NCBI RefSeq assembly: GCF_015482765.1
Contig: NZ_JADMLB010000024.1
Location: forward strand, 1 to 64,000
DNA from: Halodesulfovibrio sp.
GTDB lineage: Bacteria; Desulfobacterota; Desulfovibrionia; Desulfovibrionales; Desulfovibrionaceae
DNA: 64,000 bases
Direction of reading: 5' to 3'
Made by a program: the position numbers and the translations under genes. The notes beneath the pieces are model-generated. The model was given only the letters and a program-made list of their open reading frames with translations, was not told the origin of the DNA and did no database searches. Below, in pieces: positions 33,704 through 48,411 of this stretch; position 1 is the stretch's first letter, and each line of letters starts with the position of its first letter.

Positions 33704-34801
33704 TTACACAAACTGCCTGCGGATTTTGCCACAGAGGTAGTCGATGACGGTAACCATAAGAATGACCATGATCATCATCGTGCATACTTCACGATAAAGG
33801 TATCCATTCAGTTTATCGAATATCAGGAAGCCGAGACCGCCTGCACCGACAAATCCAAGGATGGTTGCGCTGCGTACATTTGTTTCAAAGCGAAGCAGGC
33901 TGTAGCTGGCTACAAGCGGCATAATTTGTGGCAGAACTGAGAACGCGATTGTTTGAATAGAGCTTGATCCGCTAGCCTCAACCGCTTCAACCTGCCCCGG
34001 TTCAATAGCTTCAATGCCTTCACTGAAGACTTTTCCGAGAATGCCGAACGAGTGAATGGCGAGGGCGAGCACGCCTGCGTATGGTCCAAGGCCGATAACC
34101 GCTACAAAGATGAGAGCCATTACAAATTCATTGAATCCTCGGCAGAAGTCTAAGAGACGTCGCATAGAGAATTGAATTGTGTGGCGGAGCTTTTTTCGAA
34201 CTGGAGAGCTGCCCGGGATCATTATTTTAAGTGTGTTGCGTGCTGCAAACATAGATGCCGGAATAGAAGCGACGAACGCGAAAAGTGTTCCCCAGATGGC
34301 GATAGCAAGTGTTTCAACCAGAGCCTTTGTGTATTCAAGCAAAGGGCCAGTTCTCATTTCCGGCGGAAAGAAGCCACCGCGCTTTTCATCCAGTAAGCGG
34401 GCATATTCTTCTTCAACAATTGCCTGATGCTCAAGCTGATCAATTGATGCAAGACGCTGTTCAGCCAGCTCATTCCCTCTGCGAGTCATCTCTGTAAAAT
34501 CTGTGCTTCCTGCTGCCTTCATACTGTTGCGTACTTCTGTCATAGCTTCTTGACGAATTATGATTGCAGGCAGACGGGTTGCCTGTTCCATGGCAGCTTC
34601 TTTATCGCTTTGAGTAACATCATGTCCGAAAAGATATTCGGCGGCATTCTGACGTTTTTCGTACAATTTTATAGGATCAATGCCGCACCATACGTAGGTA
34701 ATGGCGAGAACAGCGATAATGAGCGCACTCACGATGGTAACAACCGCCTTTTGGCTGGGTGTTTTTCGTGGTGTGAGTTGGGCAAGCGTTAAATCTGTCA
34801 T
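33704..34801 (-). CDS. phnE: Phosphonate ABC transporter permease PhnE
   Basis: The 365-residue permease has a first helix at about 20-40 and a hydrophilic insert of about 100 residues (45-145, partly helical, charge-rich). The usual permease core of five helices follows from about 160, with the EAA-type loop VEAVEASGSSSIQTIAFSVLPQ in pieces EAVEASGSSS and IAFSVLPQ. It imports phosphonates with PhnC and PhnD. It is about 100 residues longer than typical PhnE because of the insert. It is separated from phnD by 234 bases, more than usual for phnDE, with short hairpins but no clear terminator. Confidence 0.93.
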   Translation of the reverse strand: MTDLTLAQLTPRKTPSQKAVVTIVSALIIAVLAITYVWCGIDPIKLYEKRQNAAEYLFGHDVTQSDKEAAMEQATRLPAIIIRQEAMTEVRNSMKAAGSTDFTEMTRRGNELAEQRLASIDQLEHQAIVEEEYARLLDEKRGGFFPPEMRTGPLLEYTKALVETLAIAIWGTLFAFVASIPASMFAARNTLKIMIPGSSPVRKKLRHTIQFSMRRLLDFCRGFNEFVMALIFVAVIGLGPYAGVLALAIHSFGILGKVFSEGIEAIEPGQVEAVEASGSSSIQTIAFSVLPQIMPLVASYSLLRFETNVRSATILGFVGAGGLGFLIFDKLNGYLYREVCTMMIMVILMVTVIDYLCGKIRRQFV

Positions 34802-35035
34802 GAATTTCCTCTATTACGTAAAAATCTGAGATAAGGGTAAACCTGCATAACTGAGTTCATGTACGTACGAGTGGTTGCCAGTAACTGCTCAGTATTGTTG
34901 GCAGTGCTCTTGTGGCTCAACTTTTCCTATGTACTATCTATGAGTATCTTTTGGAGTCTTGCATCTACGACTCCTTCAGCCAGAATTGCTGAACCGAAGG
35001 AGAGCAGTCTGCAGGTTCACCCTAATTTGTATTAC

Positions 35036-35914
35036 TTATTTTGCAGCGAGTTCTTTTTTAAGACGCTTAAGGTAGCGGATAATGTCGTAAGTAGTGTCAG
35101 TGGTGAACTGGTAGCCACCGTTTTGCAGCTTATTGATACCGGCTTTGTTTGCGTTGAACATGAGCATTGCTCCGGCAAATGCTGCTTTAAGGCTTTCTGG
35201 AAGATCGCGGCGTGCAGCCATTGGAGCTCCTGGAATAAGCTCGGAACGCCAGAGGATTCGGAAGTCGTTCATGGAAACCTGACCTTTTTCAATCATACGG
35301 TCGAGGTCGATGTTGTTTGTAGCGGCTACTTCAACACCTTTGTTTTTTACAGCAAGGATGGATGCGCCGTGAGAACCGGAGAATTTAACCTGTTTGAAGT
35401 AGTCTTCAGGCTTAACGTTTAAGTCACGGGCAAAGAGAACGTTTGGTACAAGGTAGCCGGAGGTGGAGTTAGGATCTGTGAAAGCAAAAACTTTTCCCTG
35501 AATGTCGGAAAGTTTTTTCATATCGGAATCTTTACGGACGATAATGATGCCTGTGTAGCCTGGCTGTCCCTGCTTGTTGAGTTCCATGACCAGTGCCTGA
35601 GCACCTGCTTTTTCAGTAGCTTCTGTGTAACTTTTAGGGCCGAAGTAAGCAAAGTCGATATGTTTGTGAGTCATGGCAGTAATGATGCCTGCGTAGTCTG
35701 ATGCACTGAACGCTTCAACTTCAATACCGAGTACTTCGTGAAGATGTTCGGTCAACGGGGCAAAACGTTTTTTAATATCCGCATTACCTTCTGTAGGAAT
35801 GAAGCCTACACGTATTTTTGTCGGCCATACTTCCGATGGAGCTGCAAAGGCGGGCAAAGCAATTGAAACAAGCATACACAAAGTAACAAGACTCATAACT
35901 AAACGACGAAACAT
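35036..35914 (-). CDS. phnD: Phosphonate ABC transporter substrate-binding protein PhnD
   Basis: The 292-residue periplasmic receptor has a signal peptide (MFRRLVMSLVTLCMLVSIAL, cleavage near AFA-AP). The mature part starts IRVGFIPTEGNADIKKRF and has the family motifs DFAYFGPKSY and FTDPNSTSGYLVP. ATG 35914 is chosen because GGAG lies seven bases before it; four codons further upstream another ATG has no ribosome-binding site. It is the second gene of phnCDE, 51 bases after phnC. Confidence 0.94.
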   Translation of the reverse strand: MFRRLVMSLVTLCMLVSIALPAFAAPSEVWPTKIRVGFIPTEGNADIKKRFAPLTEHLHEVLGIEVEAFSASDYAGIITAMTHKHIDFAYFGPKSYTEATEKAGAQALVMELNKQGQPGYTGIIIVRKDSDMKKLSDIQGKVFAFTDPNSTSGYLVPNVLFARDLNVKPEDYFKQVKFSGSHGASILAVKNKGVEVAATNNIDLDRMIEKGQVSMNDFRILWRSELIPGAPMAARRDLPESLKAAFAGAMLMFNANKAGINKLQNGGYQFTTDTTYDIIRYLKRLKKELAAK

Positions 35915-35965
35915 ACTGTTCTCCATTTTTTTAGTGTAAAAACAAGACGTCTTATTTGGTTTAAG

Positions 35966-36793
35966 CTAAGCGCAAGCAGCAAGCTCGCCTTTAGCCTCGT
36001 TGATTCGTGCGCCGTAAATTTCGGTGATCATGTCATCATCAAGGTTCTGTGGGAGAACATCGTGGATAACTTCACCGTGGCGCATACCTACAATGCGTTT
36101 GCCGTATCTGGTGGCAAAGTCGATGTGGTGTAAGTTAACAAGCACTGGAATGTTACGGATCTCATGGATTTCACGCAGAATATCCATCACAACTTCTGCG
36201 CTGTGCGGATCAAGGCTGGCGATAGGTTCATCAGCAAGAAAGACTTCCGGTTCCTGAGCAAGAGCACGGGCAATGGCTACACGCTGTTGTTGTCCACCGG
36301 AAAGGGTATCTGCACGTTGAAAAGCAAGGTGGGCAATGCCCACTTGTTTCAGGCATTCAAATGCTGTTTCTTTTTCATCGTTGCTAAAATGTCTGGCTAG
36401 TGAACAGCATTGGCTGAACAAGGAGCTGTTAAAACGGAGGCGTCCTACCAGTACATTCTCGAGAACTGTAAGGCGTCGTACCAGATGGAATTGCTGGAAG
36501 ATCATGCCTACTTTTCTACGTACTTTTCTGATGTTTTTTCCGGATACAGCAGTGATGTCTTCTCCGAAGAGTTCAAGAGTTCCGGATGTGGGACGTATAA
36601 GGCGGTTCATGCATCGCAAAAGAGATGATTTGCCCGCACCTGAAGAGCCGATGATGGAAATGAATTCATTGGAGGCCACGGTGAGTGACACATTAGACAC
36701 AGCACGTGTGCCGTTCGGATACACTTTGGTCAGCCCTTCCGTAGAAATGGCCGGTATCTGTTTTTTGATTTGTACTTGTGTAACGTTTTGCAT
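35966..36793 (-). CDS. phnC: Phosphonate ABC transporter ATPase PhnC
   Basis: The 275-residue ABC ATPase has Walker [10 protein letters not shown], signature LSGGQQQR and Walker [11 protein letters not shown], and the [13 protein letters not shown]-type insert common in PhnC. It energises PhnE. ATG 36793 follows AGGGA by seven bases and is preferred over an ATG five codons upstream. It is the first gene of phnCDE and has two PhnF-like sites in its promoter region. Confidence 0.94.
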
Positions 36794-36906
36794 ACTGCAT
36801 TCCCTCATGAACTTATCAAAAAGAGTTATTGTCTTTGTTGAAAAGGTTCTACGGGGGGAATGTGGTAGCTTTGTTACACTGATATTGCAGTGTGTTGTCT
36901 GTGAGT

Positions 36907-40098: not shown

Positions 40099-41532
40099 AT
40101 GCTGAGACTTAATGTGCGACAGCGGATTATTGCAGGGTTTCTCATCCTTTCTATTTGCCTTGGAGGGCAGACGCTTTTTTCATACAAACAGTTGCTTCTT
40201 GTTGAAGATAAAACCTATTCTGTTGAATTTATTGATGACGTTGAAAGTTCTATTTTGAACTTCCGCAGGCAGGAAAAAAACTATCTTTTGTATGGTGAGC
40301 AGAGCAGTTATGAACTTGCGCTACTTGAGATAGAAAATACCCTTATGCTGCTTAATCGTCATTCTGATATGAATTTTGACGCAACAATGACTGAAAATAT
40401 TATTACGCTGAAAAAAACAATCAGCGAATACAGAGATCGAATTGTCTCAATGTATACTGTTTCTATGAAGCAGGGACATAATCTTGAGACAGAAGTGATC
40501 AAGCTGCGTGAAATTGGACAGGAACTGGTAGCAAAAGCGCAAAGTATCGCTACATTAGAACGGGAGAATATATTACAGATTAACAGGCAATTGCGTAAGC
40601 AGTTGCTTTTTTCAATTTTAACTGTGTCGTTTCTGTTTCTTTGCACGCTCTATTTCATAACAAAGCGGATTGTAAGTCCTCTAAAGGTGATAGAAGAAAC
40701 AACAACACAGATTGCACAAGGCAATTTTGCTCCGGTCGATGTGGGAAATATTGAGGATGAGATTGCGCAGGTACAAGTTGCCTTTAATCGTATGGTTTCA
40801 GAACTGGAGCACAGACAGGCACAGCTTGTTCAAGCGCAAAAAATGTCATCAATAGGTACGTTAAGTGCCGGAATTGCACATCAGGTAAACAACCCGCTTA
40901 ATAACATATCCACTTCAGCACAGATTCTTCAGGGAGAGCTTGGAGACTCGTTTGACCCATTTGCGAAAAAGTTGCTGCATAATATTGAAACCGAAACAGC
41001 ACGGGCACGGGATATCGTGCGAGGGTTGTTGGAGTTTGCACGATGTACAGATTTGGCTATTCGAACTGTGTCGTTAAAAGGAGTGGTTGAAAACGCAGTA
41101 CGGCTTGTTTCATCACAGATTCCTTCCGGTGTGACGTTGGATGTGGATGTGCCGGAGGAGATTTTTGTTCGGCTTGATCCTCAGCGTATGGGCGAGGTCT
41201 TAATCAACCTTATTATTAATGCAATTCAAGCTATGAAGAATAAGCCTACAGGTTTTATTACCATCACCGTGTTAGAAGATCAGGTAGACGAGGCTGTAAC
41301 ACTTGTGGTTACGGATTCCGGTAAGGGGATTAGCGATGCAGATTTGCCTAAAGTTTTTGATCCCTTTTTTACACGTAAGGAAGTGGGAGAGGGCACAGGG
41401 CTTGGATTATCAGTAGCATACGGTATAATTGAAGAGTTTGATGGAGAGATTCGGGTAGAAAGTACACTCGGTGTTGGATCTCGTTTTTATATTGATTTAC
41501 CGTTGGTTCAACATGACGAAAGTGTCGCCTGA
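40099..41532 (+). CDS. Membrane sensor histidine kinase
   Basis: The 477-residue kinase has two membrane segments (about 9-28 and 172-192) around a helical four-helix-bundle-like sensor with the ILNFRRQEKNYLLYG motif. HAMP follows at about 195-245, then HisKA with H261 in GIAHQVNNPLNNIS and the ATPase domain (NLIINAIQAM, DSGKGISDADLP, GEGTGLGLSVAYG). The Asn-rich H-box HQVNNPLN is of the NtrB-like class, which suits a sigma54 regulator partner. AGGAGG lies four to five bases before the ATG. Signal unknown. Confidence 0.93.
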   Translation: MLRLNVRQRIIAGFLILSICLGGQTLFSYKQLLLVEDKTYSVEFIDDVESSILNFRRQEKNYLLYGEQSSYELALLEIENTLMLLNRHSDMNFDATMTENIITLKKTISEYRDRIVSMYTVSMKQGHNLETEVIKLREIGQELVAKAQSIATLERENILQINRQLRKQLLFSILTVSFLFLCTLYFITKRIVSPLKVIEETTTQIAQGNFAPVDVGNIEDEIAQVQVAFNRMVSELEHRQAQLVQAQKMSSIGTLSAGIAHQVNNPLNNISTSAQILQGELGDSFDPFAKKLLHNIETETARARDIVRGLLEFARCTDLAIRTVSLKGVVENAVRLVSSQIPSGVTLDVDVPEEIFVRLDPQRMGEVLINLIINAIQAMKNKPTGFITITVLEDQVDEAVTLVVTDSGKGISDADLPKVFDPFFTRKEVGEGTGLGLSVAYGIIEEFDGEIRVESTLGVGSRFYIDLPLVQHDESVA

Positions 41533-41609
41533 AACAGAACGTCAAACAGGGCAGTTGCCGGCATGTCGTTACACGCTTGTGGGTGGCTTAAAAGTAGATG
41601 CAGGGCGTT

Positions 41610-42977
41610 ATGAATAATGCAAAGATTTTGATAGCAGAAGATGAACTGATAGCCAGAGAGAATCTTGCACATGTGCTTATGCAGCAGAGGGCTGCGGTAA
41701 CTGCTGTGGAAAACGGGGCATTAGCCCGAAAGGCAATTGAGGCAGAAGAATACGATGTGGTGCTGACTGATATGCGTATGCCTGATATCAGCGGGATGGA
41801 GTTACTGCGGATTATTAAAGCTAAAACGCCTGACACAGAAGTTATTGTGCTGACAGGATATGCGACTGTGGATAATGCGGTTCAAGCAATGGGCAAGGGA
41901 GCGTTTCAGTATCTTGCTAAGCCTGTACGTCTGGATGAGGTTTCTCTGCTCACGCAGAAAGCGTTGGAGAAGAAGCGGCTTAAAGAAGAGGTCGCTATGC
42001 TCAAAGACCAGCTGGGTTCTTCCGGATCAGATAGGATAGTCGGTCACAGTGCTCCGATACATATTCTCAAGCGGCAAATCGATCAGGTAGCAGCAGTTGG
42101 ATGTACTGTATTAATCCAAGGTGAAACCGGAACAGGAAAAGAGCTGGTAGCCAAAGCACTGCATATGGGAAGTCCGAGGCGGAATAACCTTTTTTTCGCT
42201 ATTAACTGCGCTTCGTTTAATGAAGAGCTGCTTGCTAATGAACTTTTCGGCCATGAAAAATCTGCTTTTACCGGAGCGCATTCCGCCAAAAAAGGTCTGC
42301 TTGAATCAGCAGATAACGGAACATTTTTTCTTGATGAAGTAGGGGATATGCCTCTGAGCATGCAGGCAAATTTACTGCGTGTATTGGAAACCCGAAAACT
42401 CCTCAGGGTTGGTGGAACCATCGAGGTGCCTGTTGATGTTCGCATAATAGCTGCCACTAACAGGGATCTGTTGAGTATGGTAGAGCACGGAACGTTTCGG
42501 CGAGATTTGTATTACAGGTTGAATGTCATAACGTTAGATGTCCCTCCGTTGCGAAAGCGAAAAGATGATATACCATTGTTGGCAAGCTTCTTTGTGAACA
42601 AATTTGCATCTGTTTTTAAAAAGAAAATTACCGACATTGATGACGAAGTGCTCGCAACGTTAAGCAAATATGCCTTTCCCGGAAACGTTCGTGAGTTGGA
42701 AAACTTAATGGAACGCGCAGTTGTACTTTGCAATGGTCGCGTTATTCGTATGGCACAGCTTCCTCCAGACTTGTGGGGTGATTCGCTCCTTTCCTCAACA
42801 GTGCCGAATCCGCCTATTGAATTTGATGACGTGGTGTCGCTTGAGGACAATGAACGGCGGTATCTGCGTTGGGTTCTGGAGCAGACTGATGGAAATAAAA
42901 GCCGTGCAGCTGAGCTGCTCGGGTTGAACAGAGGCTCGCTGTGGAGAAAGATGAAACGTCTTGGACTTGATGGCTAG
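41610..42977 (+). CDS. Sigma54-dependent response regulator
   Basis: The 455-residue protein has a receiver domain with D54 (VLTDMRMPD), an AAA+ domain with GETGTGKE and a sigma54-contact loop SAFTGA at 218-223 (first G replaced by S), and a Fis-type helix-turn-helix near 415-455 (NKSRAAELLGLNRGSLWRKM, in pieces NKSRAAELL and NRGSLWRK). The ATG at 41610 has GGG four bases upstream; an ATG four codons earlier is possible. It is the likely partner of the upstream kinase and the likely activator of the sigma54 promoter at 45321. Confidence 0.93.
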   Translation: MNNAKILIAEDELIARENLAHVLMQQRAAVTAVENGALARKAIEAEEYDVVLTDMRMPDISGMELLRIIKAKTPDTEVIVLTGYATVDNAVQAMGKGAFQYLAKPVRLDEVSLLTQKALEKKRLKEEVAMLKDQLGSSGSDRIVGHSAPIHILKRQIDQVAAVGCTVLIQGETGTGKELVAKALHMGSPRRNNLFFAINCASFNEELLANELFGHEKSAFTGAHSAKKGLLESADNGTFFLDEVGDMPLSMQANLLRVLETRKLLRVGGTIEVPVDVRIIAATNRDLLSMVEHGTFRRDLYYRLNVITLDVPPLRKRKDDIPLLASFFVNKFASVFKKKITDIDDEVLATLSKYAFPGNVRELENLMERAVVLCNGRVIRMAQLPPDLWGDSLLSSTVPNPPIEFDDVVSLEDNERRYLRWVLEQTDGNKSRAAELLGLNRGSLWRKMKRLGLDG

Positions 42978-43077: not shown

Positions 43078-45096
43078 CTATTCAGCCGGAAGCAGAACGT
43101 GTTCTACAACTTCATTGATGGATGAGATAAAGCGTAATTCTGCTGCGCTGCGTACTTCCTCATTCATAACCTGTACTTCCAATTTGTTTCGTTCAGGAAG
43201 CAGTATCATGCGCACACCGGCTTGCTGAGCTGCCAGAATTTTTTCACGTAACCCACCAACCGGAAGGATTCGGCCACTGAGTGTGAATTCGCCTGTCATT
43301 GCGACATCTCGGCGTGCCGGTCGTTTAGTAAGCAGTGATAGCAGCGCCATAGCAATCGTAACACCTGCAGAAGCACCATCTTTTGAAATATCTCCGGCAG
43401 GGATATGCACGTGGATGTCAATTTGCTCAAAAATGTTTTCATCAATGGAAAACGTTTTAGCGTTGCTTCGTATAAAGCTCAAAGCAGTCTGGGCCGATTC
43501 TTTTAGAATATCTCCCAGTGATCCGGTCATGAGTAACTGTCCGGTTCCTTTCATTTTGGCTGTTTCGATGTAAATGAGCTGCCCGCCGTATTCGCTCCAG
43601 ACCAATCCTGTTGTCACACCGATAAGCGGCTGCGCTGTTGCAGCTTCAAATGAATATCGTTCAAAGCCAAGCAGAGAAACGATGTCTTCGCTGGTAATGG
43701 ATATTGGCGGTTTTTTTGTGTGCTGTAAGATTTCTAAATTGATTTTGCGGCAGACGTTACCGATTTCTCTGTTCACACTGCGCAGACCTGCATCTCGGGT
43801 ATAGCCTGATATCAAGCTGGACATGGCTTCCGGTGTAAAAGAAATTTCATTCTGGGAGTAACCAAGTGTACGGAGTTGCCGTGGCGCAAGGTAATCCAGC
43901 CCAATTTGTTTCTTTTCATTGAGCGTGTAACAGGAGAAAGGAATGATTTCCATTCTGTCCCGTAAAGGAGCGGGTAGATTTTCAACTACATTTGCTGTTG
44001 TAATGAACATGACTCGCGAAAGATCAAACGGCGTGTCCAGATAGTAATCAAGGAAATGTCTGTTTTGTTCAGGGTCGAGAATTTCCAGTAGAACAGAAGC
44101 AGGGTCTCCTCTGAAATCTTGACCGATTTTGTCGACTTCATCCAGCATGAACACAGGGTTGTTTACCCCGCATTTATTAAGCTCGCTGATAATCCTGCCT
44201 GCCATAGCGCCGACATAGGTACGGCGGTGGCCACGCAGTTCTGCTTCGTCACGCATACCGGCAAGGGAAAGACGTACAAATTTTCTGGAAAGAGCATTGG
44301 CAACGGATTTGCCGATGGAAGTTTTCCCTGTACCCGGAGGGCCTGAAAAGCAAAGAATGGGGCCGGAAACTGAACATGCCTGTTTCTGGCGCTCTAAAAT
44401 TTCTTGAACCGTTGTTCGAAGAATTTCCAGATTGATGGGTTTAGGCAGGTAGTGCAATGCTCCCTGCTTTAATGCCCCTATGGCATTATCTACCGTAGCA
44501 TACCCCGTAACAATAATGAGTTTTGTATCCGGCCATTCGTCTTGAACGTAATTAAGTAGCTCAAGCCCATCCATCTTTTGCATTTTAAGATCGGTAACAA
44601 TGCAATCTACATTACGTTCCTCTAAGATCGAAACTGCTTCAAGTCCATTGGACGCAACGAGAACTTCACATGACAGTTTACTTAGAGAATACGCCATGTT
44701 GTCTCGGGAAATTTCTTCATCATCCACAACAAGGACGGTACTTTTTTTGATGTGGCAGGTGATGTTGGAAGCAAGGTATTCCAGAATACGTTGTTTGACG
44801 GTGTTAAGACCGAAATGCTCCTGATTGAGAACGGCGACTGCGTTCTCAAGTTCAAGATTATCCTGTGAGGAGTTTGTCCACGGGAGTGAGAGTAGTAATT
44901 CAACATATGTTACACCAAGCCCGAACTCCGCTACTGATGGGTCTGTTCTATCCAGCTTGGTGATTTCTTCTAACGCAATGTGGCGCACATTTTCCGGCAG
45001 TTTGGCTTTTTCAACTGCGTTTCGTAGCTCTTCCTGCGTTGTTGTTACCTGTTCCGGTATCGGGTCAATGTTCTCAGGTCTGCTAAATAGTCCCAT
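43078..45096 (-). CDS. Lon-type protease with an internal response-regulator receiver domain
   Basis: This 672-residue protein has, in order, a short helical segment as found before the AAA+ domain of Lon (1-105, with HFGLNTVKQRILEYLA, and no LON substrate-binding N-domain) and a complete receiver domain (about 112-230) with DDEE and phospho-acceptor D169 in CIVTDLKMQKMDG. The Lon AAA+ domain follows (FSGPPGTGKTS near 245, FMLDEVDKIG) and then the protease domain with S576 (DGASAG) and K619 (LREKI), 43 residues apart as in E. coli Lon. It should be an ATP-dependent protease whose activity is set by phosphorylation. ATG 45096 is chosen; 133 upstream codons run through the regulatory repeats and are rejected. 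Confidence 0.88.
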   Translation of the reverse strand: MGLFSRPENIDPIPEQVTTTQEELRNAVEKAKLPENVRHIALEEITKLDRTDPSVAEFGLGVTYVELLLSLPWTNSSQDNLELENAVAVLNQEHFGLNTVKQRILEYLASNITCHIKKSTVLVVDDEEISRDNMAYSLSKLSCEVLVASNGLEAVSILEERNVDCIVTDLKMQKMDGLELLNYVQDEWPDTKLIIVTGYATVDNAIGALKQGALHYLPKPINLEILRTTVQEILERQKQACSVSGPILCFSGPPGTGKTSIGKSVANALSRKFVRLSLAGMRDEAELRGHRRTYVGAMAGRIISELNKCGVNNPVFMLDEVDKIGQDFRGDPASVLLEILDPEQNRHFLDYYLDTPFDLSRVMFITTANVVENLPAPLRDRMEIIPFSCYTLNEKKQIGLDYLAPRQLRTLGYSQNEISFTPEAMSSLISGYTRDAGLRSVNREIGNVCRKINLEILQHTKKPPISITSEDIVSLLGFERYSFEAATAQPLIGVTTGLVWSEYGGQLIYIETAKMKGTGQLLMTGSLGDILKESAQTALSFIRSNAKTFSIDENIFEQIDIHVHIPAGDISKDGASAGVTIAMALLSLLTKRPARRDVAMTGEFTLSGRILPVGGLREKILAAQQAGVRMILLPERNKLEVQVMNEEVRSAAELRFISSINEVVEHVLLPAE

Positions 45097-45159
45097 TTTT
45101 CCCGCCTTTTGTTTCTTACAATATATCAGTTTGATACGACTAAATCTATGTATTCCGTT

Positions 45160-45257
45160 GCTGCAATATGCAGCGTTTTTTTGTGAAAATAATCGGATGT
45201 TGCAAATGGATTGCTGCATATTGCAGCGCTCTAATTGTAACCGCTGCATATTGAAGC
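45160..45257. repeat. Three 15-base palindromes, candidate enhancer sites
   Basis: GCTGCAATATGCAGC (45160-45174) and GCTGCATATTGCAGC (45213-45227) are perfect, and GCTGCATATTGAAGC (45243-45257) has one mismatch. They lie 64-160 bases upstream of a sigma54 promoter, the normal position for sites of an NtrC-type activator, most likely the response regulator at 41610. The first copy also lies 63 bases from the Lon-REC start and may control it. Confidence 0.75.
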
Positions 45258-45320
45258 GGAAGAATGAGTGGCATAAATGCAACTGGATGAATAAATCCTT
45301 TAAAAGCAGCGTGTTACAGT

Positions 45321-45337
45321 TTGGCACGAAAGGTGCT
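45321..45337 (+). promoter_or_regulatory. Sigma54 (-24/-12) promoter of the USP/TauE operon
   Basis: TTGGCACGAAAGGTGCT has a perfect -24 box, GG at 45323-45324, exact ten-base spacing and GC at 45335-45336. Transcription should start near 45348, 32 bases before the first gene. Confidence 0.85.
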
Positions 45338-45379
45338 TTTAACGAGGCAAGATTCATAAAGAACACGGTGGGATAGTTC

Positions 45380-45868
45380 ATGAAGATAATGAAAATGTTG
45401 GAGTCTGTAGCCACTGCGGCTGCATTTGCAGAAGCAGGGGAACAGGACACAGCTCTCGAGATCATGCAGGCACATGAGAAACAGAAGAAGATCATTGTTG
45501 CCTATGATGGCGAGCCGGCAGAACGGCAGGTTATTCGGGCTGCATTGCCCGTAGCAATACGTTTGCATTGCGAACTGCTGTTTACCTGCGTGCTTGGCAG
45601 AGCACGCTCAGAAAAGCTGGGCAAGCGATTTCTTGAGGTATCAAACCGTTCTTTTAAACAAATTTTCAGCGAGGAGGTGGCAAAACTACCAGGTGTTCAG
45701 CAGTCAATTAATGCTAGGCAAATTGTTGTGTTTGAGGGCTTTAATGAGGCAGTACGAAGAATTTGTAATGAAACACGAGAGGTAGAGTTTGTGCTTCTCC
45801 GGTGTGAAGAGTGCAAGCCGGCTCAATTACACATAGATGTGCCGTATTTTTTTATGACGACTACTTAG
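45380..45868 (+). CDS. Universal stress protein-like protein with a short N-terminal module
   Basis: The 162-residue protein has a UspA-like fold (KKIIVAYDGEPAERQVIRAA at about 36-55). The usual ATP-binding GxxG loop at the C-terminus is missing. The first 30 residues, MKIMKMLESVATAAAFAEAG and following, form a separate module that recurs in the next small gene. It is first in the sigma54-driven operon. GGGA lies six bases before the ATG. A regulatory or stress role is inferred from the family. Confidence 0.75.
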   Translation: MKIMKMLESVATAAAFAEAGEQDTALEIMQAHEKQKKIIVAYDGEPAERQVIRAALPVAIRLHCELLFTCVLGRARSEKLGKRFLEVSNRSFKQIFSEEVAKLPGVQQSINARQIVVFEGFNEAVRRICNETREVEFVLLRCEECKPAQLHIDVPYFFMTTT

Positions 45869-45921: not shown

Positions 45922-46083
45922 GTGAATCTGTTTAAGACGTTAGAAAGGCTCTTTGTAGCAGTCGTGTATGCCGAGAGTGGCGATAGTGAGATGGCTAGTC
46001 GCATCGTCAACGGGCAGGAGGAAAAGCGGGCAACCGAACGGGCTTCTAAAAAAGCTCAAAAAAGACCTCAGCTACGAGTGTAA
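45922..46083 (+). CDS. 53-residue protein, paralogue of the preceding N-terminal module
   Basis: The GTG start lies five bases after AAAGGAGG. The product begins MNLFKTLERLFVAVVYAESG and ends with a very basic tail (ASKKAQKRPQLRV). It matches the first 30 residues of the preceding USP-like protein: M-x-x-x-K-x-LE, then A-x-x-(F/Y)AE-x-G, then A-x-x-I. The shared module suggests a common interaction partner. It lies in the same operon, 53 bases after the USP gene and 31 bases before the next. Confidence 0.7.
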   Translation: MNLFKTLERLFVAVVYAESGDSEMASRIVNGQEEKRATERASKKAQKRPQLRV

Positions 46084-46114
46084 GGTTCTACAGCAGGAAG
46101 AAGAAGGAGTAAAA

Positions 46115-46426
46115 ATGAAAACCGCTCAGGATAAAAAGAAAAAGGCAAAATTACACGCCCTTCTGTTCGGCGCAGCAAGCATCAGCTTGTACGCGGCAGT
46201 ATTTAAATTCGCAGATCCTATGGTGGAACTGTACGCAAAAGGTGGTGCATACTGCCTGTTGCCTGTTTCAACCGTATTTTTATTTTCCTATGTTCATGGC
46301 AACTTTGCCAGCAACGTCTGGACCGCTTTGGGAATAGAAGCTTCCTCAAGCGCAGGACGTAAGTCTGATAAAGCAGAGAAAACCCAACGTAAGGACACCC
46401 GAAGCCGCGCTACTCTGAAAGCGTAG
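46115..46426 (+). CDS. Small basic membrane protein
   Basis: The 103-residue protein has a lysine-rich N-terminus (KTAQDKKKKAK), two hydrophobic segments (about 14-34 and 43-62) and a charged C-terminus. AAGGAG lies five bases before ATG 46115; the 49 upstream codons overlap the 53-residue gene in another frame and are rejected. It precedes the exporter gene by 27 bases and may be an accessory subunit. No family recognised. Confidence 0.7.
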   Translation: MKTAQDKKKKAKLHALLFGAASISLYAAVFKFADPMVELYAKGGAYCLLPVSTVFLFSYVHGNFASNVWTALGIEASSSAGRKSDKAEKTQRKDTRSRATLKA

Positions 46427-46453: not shown

Positions 46454-47521
46454 ATGCATGACGTATTGTTAGATGGTGCTCGTTTTGTTGACCTGTCTTT
46501 GGCGGGTGTTCTTTTTCTCTTTTTTGTCGGCTTTGTCGGTGGATTGGTCAGCGGATTTATCGGTTCCGGCGGTGCCTTTGTTCTCACTCCGGGTATGATG
46601 AGCCTCGGGGTTCCGGGACCTGTGGCCGTTGCCAGTAACATGTGTCACAAGTTCCCTAAGGCTCTTGTTGGTGCACTCAAGCGTTACAAGTATGGTCAGG
46701 TAGATATCAAAATGGGGCTTATTGTCGGTGTTTCTGCTGAAATAGGTGTTCAGATTGGTATTCAGGTACAAAAAATGATTCTGGAGCAGTGGGGACCTGC
46801 GGGTTCAAACCTCTACGTATCCTTCGCCTTTGTGTTCGTTCTGGTTACTGTTGGCAGTTTTGTTATGAAAGACGCCATCAATACCAAACGGAACGGTGGT
46901 GAAGAGAAAGTGACCAACCTTGCGAAAAAGCTTCAGAGCATTGAATTGTGGCCTATGGTTAACTTTAAAGGCAGCAACATTCGCATCTCTTTCTGGTTTA
47001 CAGCACCAGTAGGTCTTGCTGCCGGTTTGCTTGCAGCTACAATTGCTGTTGGCGGTTTCGCTGGTGTTCCGGGAATGATCTACATTATCGGTATGTCCAG
47101 CCTGATGGCTTCAGCAACTGAGCTTGTTGTGGCATTCGTTATGGGGCTTGGCGGTACACTTATTTGGGCTTTTTACGGAATGGTAGATATTCGCCTCACC
47201 CTTATTATTCTTGCCGGTTCACTCTTCGGCGTTCAGCTTGGCGCAATTGGTACAACATACGTAAAAGATTATGTAATCAAATACGTAATGGCGACCATTA
47301 TGCTAATCGTAGCTTTCAGCCGCGGCCTTGCAATGCCAAAATATCTTAAACAATTAGATGCCATTAACTGGGATGCAAGCCTTATTTCCAGTATGAGCAA
47401 AACCAGCTTCGGTCTTATGTGTTTTGCTCTTGGTGTCGGGGCATTCATTATCCTTAAATCAATGGTTATGGGACGCAGGCAGGAACGGAAAATGGAACTG
47501 GCAGCCAATTCCAACGCATAG
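46454..47521 (+). CDS. TauE/SafE-family exporter (possible sulfite or organosulfonate exporter)
   Basis: The 355-residue membrane protein has about eight helices. The first TauE motif is GGLVSGFIGSGGAFVLTPGM, with the GSGG loop at about residue 37, and the repeat half is GLLAATIAVGGFAGVPGM. Members export sulfite, sulfoacetate or other small anions. In a sulfur-metabolising organism, sulfite or a related sulfur anion is a reasonable guess, not shown by sequence. AGGAG lies seven bases upstream. It is the central gene of the sigma54-controlled operon. Confidence 0.85.
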   Translation: MHDVLLDGARFVDLSLAGVLFLFFVGFVGGLVSGFIGSGGAFVLTPGMMSLGVPGPVAVASNMCHKFPKALVGALKRYKYGQVDIKMGLIVGVSAEIGVQIGIQVQKMILEQWGPAGSNLYVSFAFVFVLVTVGSFVMKDAINTKRNGGEEKVTNLAKKLQSIELWPMVNFKGSNIRISFWFTAPVGLAAGLLAATIAVGGFAGVPGMIYIIGMSSLMASATELVVAFVMGLGGTLIWAFYGMVDIRLTLIILAGSLFGVQLGAIGTTYVKDYVIKYVMATIMLIVAFSRGLAMPKYLKQLDAINWDASLISSMSKTSFGLMCFALGVGAFIILKSMVMGRRQERKMELAANSNA

Positions 47522-47556: not shown

Positions 47557-48411
47557 ATGTATAAAAGAATGCTTGTAGCTTTTGACGGCGCAGAAACTTC
47601 AATGGAAATAGTCCGGCAGGCGGCACGCTTTGCCCGATCTGAAAACTCCATGGTCGATATAGTGACGGTTTGTCCTGAATATCAGGGTGATCTGCGCATT
47701 CAAGGAGATACAAACGTTCTGTACGATATGTACGATAACATTCGTAGCGCTCTTAACACTGCTGTGAAGGAGTGTGAAGCCGATGGCGTTCACGTCCGTG
47801 GCCACTTTTGCATAGGGAATCCAACCGAGGTGCTGATAGAGCACATAGAGAATCTTGAGGCAGATGTGGTTGCGTTGGGAACACATGCGTCACAGTTGCT
47901 TCAGTCAATTGTCATCGGTTCTGTTGCAGATGCTGTGATTCGGCAGACAGACAGCGACTTGCTGGTCGTTACAGGGAATCAGGAACTCTCCCTGGAACGT
48001 GTTTTTGTTGCGTATGACGGCAGTGCGGAAGCAAATGCAGCAGCACAGGAAGCATGTGCTTTAGCAGAACGGTATGGCGCAGTACTGACTGCCGGAATTG
48101 CCTACGAAATGGATATGGAAGCCTTTAGCATTTCTCCGGTTGTGGAGCGCTCTGTTGTTGAAAAAACAGAGATTACAGTCGAAGCAATAAAAGGAATCGC
48201 CGACGCGCATGATCTGCGGGAATTTGATGTGGCTGTGCGATATGGCAATCCTGCCCATCAGGTGCTGGTAGAAGAAGCAAAGCAGAATAAAGCCGGATTG
48301 ATTGTGATTGGTGCAGGTGCTCGCAGCAAGCTTTCTCATCTTCTTGTCGGCGGGGTTGTACATAAATTGGTTTACAGCAGCGATTGTCCAGTACTGATTG
48401 TAAAGGAGTAA
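47557..48411 (+). CDS. Tandem universal stress protein
   Basis: The 284-residue protein has two Usp domains (1-140 and 147-284). Each opens with a VAFDG or VAYDG strand. The second ends with the nucleotide-binding VIGAGARSKLSHLLVGGVVH and VLIVKE. The first ends with LGTHASQLLQSIVIGSVADA and LLVVTG. Tandem Usps of this type often bind ATP and accompany transporters. It follows the TauE gene by 35 bases. Confidence 0.88.
   Translation: MYKRMLVAFDGAETSMEIVRQAARFARSENSMVDIVTVCPEYQGDLRIQGDTNVLYDMYDNIRSALNTAVKECEADGVHVRGHFCIGNPTEVLIEHIENLEADVVALGTHASQLLQSIVIGSVADAVIRQTDSDLLVVTGNQELSLERVFVAYDGSAEANAAAQEACALAERYGAVLTAGIAYEMDMEAFSISPVVERSVVEKTEITVEAIKGIADAHDLREFDVAVRYGNPAHQVLVEEAKQNKAGLIVIGAGARSKLSHLLVGGVVHKLVYSSDCPVLIVKE

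What the first reader, a model, noticed from the sequence alone, without database searches (positions are those of the whole stretch)
43078..45096. Lon protease with a response-regulator receiver domain inserted before the AAA+ module
A complete receiver (DDEE, D169, then the T and K positions in TGYATVD and LPKPI) is embedded between the pre-AAA helical segment and the AAA+ domain of a Lon protease whose Ser-Lys dyad (S576, K619) has normal spacing. The LON substrate-recognition domain is absent. This suggests proteolysis switched by phosphorylation, with the upstream kinase at 40099 as the obvious donor. Architectures of this sort may exist in related Desulfovibrio, but the arrangement is rare and its target is unknown.
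Basis: partly seen in the sequence, partly recalled or inferred. Interest (0 to 1): 0.85.

Follow-up and report, generated by a model that had tools for sequence, protein, structure and literature searches.

The report
Kinase-controlled Lon protease with built-in receiver
An unnamed bacterium carries a protein-shredding enzyme with a two-component "receiver" switch built into its motor; the fusion was already noted in Desulfovibrio vulgaris, but its spread, its exact insertion point and a possible target (a small membrane protein with a conserved tail) are added here.

Summary
The 672-aa protein is on the minus strand (45096 to 43078): Pfam Response_reg 121-230, AAA, Lon_lid and Lon_C, no LON domain. 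AlphaFold folds the insert as a receiver. It lies inside the AAA+ module, not before it: it replaces an 11-residue loop between the HYG-motif helix and the Walker A strand. D125, D169, K219, S576 and K619 are kept in 61 of 61 fused proteins.

It is neither new nor very rare. DVU3303 of D. vulgaris is the same kind of protein in a like gene set, reported in 2011, and fitness data tie it to its kinase and regulator. The fusion is in 20/39 relatives and 49/395 phylum genomes (own genome counted) and 25/198 genomes of a second phylum group. An HK/sigma-54-RR pair is near it in 50/61 loci, against 0/79 ordinary Lon loci.

New: a small membrane protein beside the TauE-family transporter has a conserved C-terminal tail in 38 of 104 genomes that carry it; all 38 have the fused Lon. 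I propose a degron or docking site; the phylogenetic test is too weak to show it.

The parts
43078..45096 (-). lonRR: Lon protease with receiver domain inside its AAA+ module, 672 aa
44749..45039 (-). N-terminal helical segment, residues 20-116; aligns with Thermus Lon 247-340, includes the H-F/Y-G-L motif at 94-97
44374..44739 (-). receiver domain, residues 120-241, phospho-acceptor D169 (codon 44590-44592)
   Evidence: Pfam; AlphaFold; Foldseek; D169 in 61/61
43711..44367 (-). rest of AAA+ module and lid, residues 244-462 (Walker A 252-260, Walker B 315-320)
43093..43698 (-). Lon_C serine protease domain, residues 467-668, dyad S576 (43369-43371) and K619 (43240-43242)
40099..41532 (+). histidine kinase (HAMP, HisKA, HATPase_c), proposed phosphodonor
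   Evidence: with the RR in 50/61 fused loci
41598..42977 (+). sigma-54 activator response regulator (REC, sigma-54 AAA+, Fis HTH), DVU3305-like
45160..45174 (.). exact palindrome GCTGCANNNTGCAGC, proposed binding site of the sigma-54 RR
45213..45227 (.). second exact palindrome, 53 bp from the first; a third with one mismatch at 45243-45257
45322..45337 (+). sigma-54 -24/-12 type promoter TGGCACGAAAGGTGCT facing the Usp/TauE operon; a like site in all 9 same-genus fused loci (window included)
45380..45868 (+). short Usp-like protein (Pfam Usp below cut-off)
46115..46423 (+). p103: small membrane protein, no Pfam or NCBIfam family, conserved core plus variable linker plus conserved basic C-terminal tail (tail about 46343-46423); proposed LonRR target. 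The listed ORF 45968-46426 is probably over-long at its 5' end
46454..47521 (+). TauE/SafE-family transporter (DVU3299-like by context)
   Evidence: with p103 in 39/61 fused loci
47557..48411 (+). double universal stress protein

Best explanation
This is a phosphorylation-gated Lon protease of the same kind as DVU3303 of Desulfovibrio vulgaris, the third member of a stress module made of a membrane kinase, a sigma-54 activator and the protease. Inferred working: the kinase at 40099 phosphorylates the receivers of both the activator (41598) and LonRR (D169). The activator binds the palindromes at 45160-45257 and fires the sigma-54 promoter at 45322, making the Usp/p103/TauE proteins. Phosphorylation of LonRR shifts its receiver, which is joined by short linkers on both sides to the ATPase core (helix 98-116 into receiver beta1; receiver alpha5 223-241 into the Walker A strand), and so changes ATPase or hexamer activity. 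One signal thus controls synthesis of a transporter set and activity of a protease. With no LON domain, LonRR should have few substrates; the best candidate is the divergently encoded p103, through its C-terminal tail. Shown: domains, conservation, linkage, DNA sites, models. Inferred: phosphotransfer, sign of the switch, substrate.
For: Domains and fold. Phospho-site and proteolytic dyad in 61/61. Fused Lons are one side of a branch on the Lon core alone, receiver left out (SH-aLRT 99*; 34 of 61 fused, 42 ordinary Lons). HK/RR pair in 50/61 fused loci against 0/79 (0/37 of those of at least 14 kb) ordinary Lon loci. Neighbouring RR has the best receiver match to this one in its own genome (84.6 bits; next 69.4). 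Palindromes: the only two exact copies in 3.71 Mb, with counterparts 52-53 bp apart in 9 of 9 same-genus fused loci at up to two mismatches. Sigma-54-type site in the same 9 of 9; in the window it is the only site at 11 of 12. Published for D. vulgaris: the RR targets its own operon and DVU3302-3298; pairwise cofitness above 0.9 for DVU3303-3305.
Against: No biochemical data on phosphotransfer or protease activity were seen in the passages read. HK/RR pair not found by my thresholds in 11 of 61 loci; some of these are cut by contig ends, not all. The control Lon loci come from other genomes, largely other groups, and many are short. The HK-contact helix of the LonRR receiver is only slightly more like the same-locus RR than other-locus RRs (0.49 against 0.45, 52 loci), so kinase sharing rests on linkage. 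No sigma-54 site of 10 of 12 or better faces lonRR in the window, so its own transcription is open. In the window alone, palindromes at up to two mismatches are no more than chance (3 against 3.84 expected), and the strict palindrome fades outside the genus.
Confidence: 0.7

Rival explanations
1. LonRR's job is feedback on its own signalling: it degrades the sigma-54 activator or the kinase when phosphorylated, ending the response.
For: Tight linkage to HK and RR (50/61); proteolytic feedback on regulators is a known theme (recalled).
Against: In D. vulgaris the Lon, HK and RR mutants have same-sign, highly correlated fitness (all pairwise above 0.9); a protease that destroys the activator should rather give the opposite sign. 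In four fused loci (L180, L195, L196, L228) no HK or RR homologue was found in the fetched stretch.
Confidence: 0.2
2. The receiver is mainly a phosphate sink or a dimerisation device that tunes the shared kinase; proteolysis is general quality control.
For: The receiver is complete and ordinary Lon is a quality-control enzyme (recalled).
Against: The genome already has two ordinary Lons; the receiver is placed inside the ATPase core with the dyad intact in 61/61 fused proteins, more than a sink needs; no LON domain for broad recognition.
Confidence: 0.12
3. Phosphorylation switches LonRR OFF: it is active in unstressed cells and is inhibited by the stress signal.
For: Nothing in the sequence fixes the sign; receivers next to AAA+ rings can inhibit in the unphosphorylated state or the reverse (recalled for NtrC1 and NtrC).
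Against: Loss of HK and loss of Lon have the same-sign phenotype in D. vulgaris, which fits HK activating Lon.
Confidence: 0.25

Closest known systems
DVU3303 of Desulfovibrio vulgaris Hildenborough, three-component system DVU3303-3305 (PMC3333781, PMC4641369, PMC10102598; passages read)
   Same: Response regulator with a Lon protease, encoded with a HK and a sigma-54 RR, next to an operon with UspA-type domains and a putative anion transporter
   Different: There the three genes are numbered consecutively and called an operon; here lonRR is convergent to HK-RR and divergent from the Usp/TauE operon. I did not compare the two protein sequences directly
LonA proteases (TIGR00763; Thermus Lon 7p6u)
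   Same: Helical segment, AAA+ and Ser-Lys protease align over 17-110 and 244-670
   Different: No LON domain; 133 residues (111-243) in place of an 11-residue loop (341-351 of Thermus Lon)
CpdR and RssB (receiver proteins that steer ClpXP; recalled; their NCBIfam models also matched the receiver)
   Same: Two-component phosphorylation controls ATP-dependent proteolysis
   Different: There the receiver is a separate adaptor; here it is part of the protease
NtrC1-type sigma-54 activators
   Same: Receiver whose alpha5 helix leads towards an AAA+ module (recalled); NtrC1 receiver among the best folds
   Different: Receiver precedes the AAA+ module; output is transcription, not proteolysis
Lon with a phosphorylation switch in Xanthomonas citri (PMC5784255; search listing and start of abstract only)
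   Same: Lon activity said to be set by phosphorylation
   Different: Title and abstract start speak of Lon itself in a type III secretion context; details not read
LarA-Lon of Caulobacter (PMC10665427, abstract and passages)
   Same: Small protein whose conserved C-terminus is a Lon degron and regulator, as I propose for p103
   Different: LarA acts on an ordinary Lon, likely through the N-terminal domain that LonRR lacks; p103 looks like a membrane protein

Membership tests
DVU3303-type Lon-RR | Receiver and Lon protease in one protein | tested here: met
DVU3303-type Lon-RR | Encoded beside a histidine kinase and a sigma-54 response regulator | tested here: met
DVU3303-type Lon-RR | Beside an operon with Usp domains and a putative anion transporter | tested here: met
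   operon content of DVU3298-3302
DVU3303-type Lon-RR | Sequence orthology to DVU3303 itself | not tested
   the DVU3303 sequence was not fetched; genomes of the genome search are unnamed
LonA protease (TIGR00763) | Score over curated cut-off | tested here: met
   679.3 against 608.05 bits
LonA protease (TIGR00763) | Ser-Lys dyad and Walker A motif | tested here: met
   S576 and K619 in 61/61; G252, P253, P254, G255, G257, K258, T259 invariant in 57 aligned
LonA protease (TIGR00763) | N-terminal LON substrate-binding domain | tested here: not met
   no hit at E<=5; 19 residues precede the first helix
Response regulator | Receiver fold with acidic pair, phospho-Asp, T/S, K | tested here: met
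Response regulator | Phosphorylated by a histidine kinase and activity changed by it | not testable with these tools
   needs biochemistry
CpdR/RssB adaptors | Receiver in a protein separate from the protease | tested here: not met
   receiver is internal to Lon

The most novel reading that the evidence does not exclude
LonRR is a dedicated, kinase-switched protease for the divergently encoded transporter complex: it recognises the conserved basic C-terminal tail of p103 and so removes or remodels the TauE-family transporter that the same kinase's sigma-54 regulator has just induced. The tail (23-36 aa, ending for example in R-A-T-L-N-A) is present in 38 of 104 p103 genomes, all 38 with LonRR; 39 of the 45 genomes in which no LonRR was found have only a short end. 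It would be a receiver-controlled Lon with a co-evolved degron and would explain why loss of HK, RR or Lon helps D. vulgaris in chlorate while loss of the transporter hurts.
Probability: 0.28. Interest if true: 0.8.

Novelty: new member of a known kind. Interest (0 to 1): 0.55.

Why it matters
A receiver spliced into a protease motor would be direct phosphorylation control of ATP-dependent proteolysis in one polypeptide, and the insertion point next to Walker A suggests a mechanism that can be tested on a single protein. The family is common enough to matter. The p103 tail gives a concrete candidate substrate, and it bears on the sign of the published chlorate fitness data.

Tried and rejected
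Rejected: chance receiver-like match (93 bits, fold, 61/61 conservation). Rejected: decayed enzyme (active-site residues invariant). Rejected: assembly chimera (the same fusion in 60 loci of other genomes). Rejected: longer protein from 45495 (overlaps the divergent gene).

Led nowhere: the plasmid search found no fused copy (of 61 matching records none covers 80% of the query). The helix alpha1 comparison of LonRR and RR receivers was weak, and one of its four comparison receivers (L085) was read wrongly, so that column is not used. The first sigma-54 scan used a wrong spacing and is superseded (replaced by 57). redrew the window's phylum and is not added.

Results against the tail idea. On the p103 core tree (102 of 104 rows; two had no core match and were dropped) LonRR changes 19 times and the tail 6 times; only 3 and 2 independent supported pairs exist, none in the opposite direction, sign test p between 0.5 and 1. 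In that script the end rule missed one tail (G429) and G504 was still coded as LonRR-less. 21 LonRR genomes have p103 without the tail: 4 of the window's phylum, with p103 on another contig or far away (G339, G183, G414, G076), and 17 of the second group, of which 12 have p103 within about 10 kb of lonRR. Six genomes of one genus (g27) without LonRR have a long tail of another sequence ending in AHG, VHG or AHS; by the profile match alone three of them reach position 88 or beyond of 92. The tail was judged by eye from the printed ends. A re-check of the genomes first coded LonRR-less found fragments cut by contig ends in two: G356 (tailed) and G504 (tail-less), both now counted as LonRR genomes.

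Full report
What is there. The finding's coordinates hold an ORF on the minus strand, 45096 to 43078, 672 aa. Pfam gives, in order, a receiver (121-230), AAA (248-385), Lon_lid (412-462) and Lon_C (467-668); TIGR00763 scores 679 bits over a cut-off of 608. No LON domain is found even at E<=5.

Where the receiver sits. Against Thermus Lon (7p6u), residues 17-110 align with 247-340 and residues 244-670 with 352-777, so residues 111-243 replace an 11-residue loop. The two ordinary Lons of the same genome have 8 and 1 residues between the two aligned blocks. The block before the insert contains the H-F/Y-G-L motif, which in AAA+ proteins belongs to the nucleotide-binding module (recalled), so the insert is inside the AAA+ module, between its first helix and the Walker A strand. 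The AlphaFold model (57 of 61 fused sequences in the alignment; pLDDT 88, pTM 0.80) has helix 98-116 ending three residues before receiver strand 120-124, and receiver helix 223-241 ending five residues before strand 247-251, which leads into Walker A. Confidence is lower around residues 200-250 (block means 72-88). The receiver alone (49 of 61 sequences) also folds as a receiver, and the 50 listed Foldseek matches are receivers or receiver-bearing proteins. The 50 listed full-length matches are Lon.

Conservation and origin. In 61 fused proteins (60 from other genomes plus the window) D125, D169, A200, K219, P220, S576 and K619 are invariant; T197 is T in 60 and S in one; D126 is D in 60 and E in one. 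A tree of the AAA+/protease part without the receiver puts 34 fused sequences on one side of a branch and 42 ordinary Lons on the other, SH-aLRT 99 (quick search; 34 of 61 fused loci, 40 of 79 ordinary loci plus 2 own paralogues). One origin of the fusion fits the data.

Distribution. At E<=1e-150 or 1e-165 the fusion was found in 20 of 39 relatives (own genome included), 49 of 395 genomes drawn from the window's phylum (own included; 48 over most of the length, one, G043, only over its Lon part; that stretch also holds residues 1-205 in another frame), and 25 of 198 genomes of the phylum of G434, the genome of a record titled Thermodesulfovibrionia. These are lower bounds: two more genomes, G356 and G504, hold fragments at contig ends.

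Neighbourhood. Among 61 fused loci (window included), 50 have a HK (150 bits or more) and a sigma-54 RR (300 bits or more) less than 2 kb apart within the fetched stretch (usually about 8 kb each side, less at contig ends); 39 have the TauE homologue with p103 beside it; 36 have both. Of 79 ordinary Lon loci none has either, nor do any of the 37 of at least 14 kb; these come from other genomes, so the control is not matched by taxon. Orientation and order vary among the fused loci, so the linkage is kept through rearrangement.

Control DNA. The divergent region 45097-45379 holds two exact palindromes GCTGCANNNTGCAGC and one with a mismatch; within the window the count at up to two mismatches is not above chance (3 against 3.84 expected). 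But the two are the only exact copies in the 3.71 Mb genome; with one mismatch allowed the count is 22 against 6 for the reversed pattern. In all 9 same-genus fused loci (window included) sites with up to two mismatches lie 52-53 bp apart upstream of lonRR. A sigma-54-type promoter faces the Usp/TauE operon at 45322-45337; a site of 10 or 11 of 12 lies at the like place in the same 9 of 9, and in the window it is the only one at 11 of 12, with five others at 10. Elsewhere TTGCANNNTGCAA-type palindromes occur in some loci only.

What is already known. Rajeev et al. [quoted passage not shown] The sigma-54 study (PMC4641369, one passage) lists the same targets. The 2023 fitness study (PMC10102598, passages) reports all pairwise cofitness above 0.9 for DVU3303-3305, that these genes are detrimental in chlorate, and that the transporter DVU3299 is important there (fitness -2.3). 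So the window's module is a member of this known kind. I did not compare with the DVU3303 sequence itself. Searches showed, by title and abstract start, no other paper on this protein in the library held.

A candidate target. p103 (46115-46423) has no Pfam family (E<=1) or NCBIfam family. Its two hydrophobic stretches and basic ends suggest both ends in the cytoplasm (by eye, inference). Its core is followed by a variable linker and a conserved tail. With a profile of p103, 51 of 395 genomes of the window's phylum and 53 of 198 of the second group have a match. Reading each C-terminus: a tail of 23-36 aa with a basic stretch and an end such as LNA, LNV, LRA, MSA or FHRL is present in 31 and 7 genomes. 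All 38 have the fused Lon (in G356 it is cut by the contig end; in G316 the two genes lie on different contigs, lonRR at the end of its own). Of the 16 and 29 genomes without a detected LonRR none has this tail; 39 of these 45 end within a few residues of the core, and six (genus g27) have a long tail of other sequence. Against the idea: 21 LonRR genomes have a tail-less p103 (4 and 17), 12 of the 17 with the genes within about 10 kb; and the tree test has too few independent changes. The association may simply reflect inheritance of one gene cluster. The re-check also shows seven LonRR-less genomes (G366, G166, G307, G383, G581, G486, G619) in which a protein of RR size with a receiver close to that of LonRR lies within 3 kb of a tail-less p103, as if the regulator/p103 set can exist without LonRR and the tail; those proteins were not tested for a sigma-54 domain.

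Why the tail idea is still worth testing. In LonRR genomes p103 more often sits at the end of an open frame of 240 aa or more (23 of 59, against 1 of 45 without LonRR, recounted); what precedes the core is unclear, since Pfam gives only a Usp match below cut-off in one of three tested. Lon is known to use C-terminal degrons: the SulA tag binds the N-terminal domain (PMC8087443, passages), and in Caulobacter a five-residue C-terminus of LarA is a degron and allosteric activator (PMC10665427, abstract and passages). LonRR lacks that N-terminal domain, which argues either for a private recognition site or against this reading. If LonRR lowers the p103/TauE complex, the opposite signs of the published fitness effects (HK, RR, Lon loss helpful; transporter loss harmful) follow directly, whereas pure activation of the transporter by the RR predicts the same sign for RR and transporter (inference).

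Mechanism I commit to. Phosphorylation of D169 by the linked kinase most likely activates LonRR (about 0.7 that the protease is gated by this kinase; direction less sure). The same kinase drives the sigma-54 regulator. Steps shown here are architecture, conservation, linkage and DNA sites; phosphotransfer, direction and substrate are inference.

Noticed in passing
46115-46423 (+): Small membrane protein family without Pfam/NCBIfam entry beside TauE-family transporters in two phylum groups; homologues also in genomes where no LonRR was found (mostly with a short C-terminus).
   Followed up: yes
L230, L234, L242, L245, L280, L281 (p103 frames): In 24 of 104 genomes the p103 open frame is at least 240 aa long, with another domain ahead of the membrane core; Pfam Usp only below cut-off in one of three tested. 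An internal Met at the junction could be a second start.
   Followed up: partly
41598-42977 (+): The sigma-54 activator reads SAFTGA where GAFTGA is usual (recalled); the D. vulgaris counterpart is listed as GAFSGA (PMC4641369).
   Followed up: no
G000:C49:5243, G000:C59:10987, G000:C56:73742: Near-palindromes (one mismatch) elsewhere in the genome that may mark further members of this regulon.
   Followed up: no
G366:C9, G166:C1, G307:C1, G383:C8, G581:C95, G486:C182, G619:C29: Receiver proteins of RR size within 3 kb of tail-less p103 in genomes without LonRR: perhaps the module before LonRR joined or after it was lost.
   Followed up: no
33704-36808 (-): ABC transporter gene set: permease (Pfam BPD_transp_1), PhnD-like binding protein and ATPase (the last two by eye).
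   Followed up: no
G000:C45, G000:C58, G000:C37, G000:C26: The genome also has two ordinary Lon genes (845 and 812 aa frames) and two weaker Lon_C matches.
   Followed up: no
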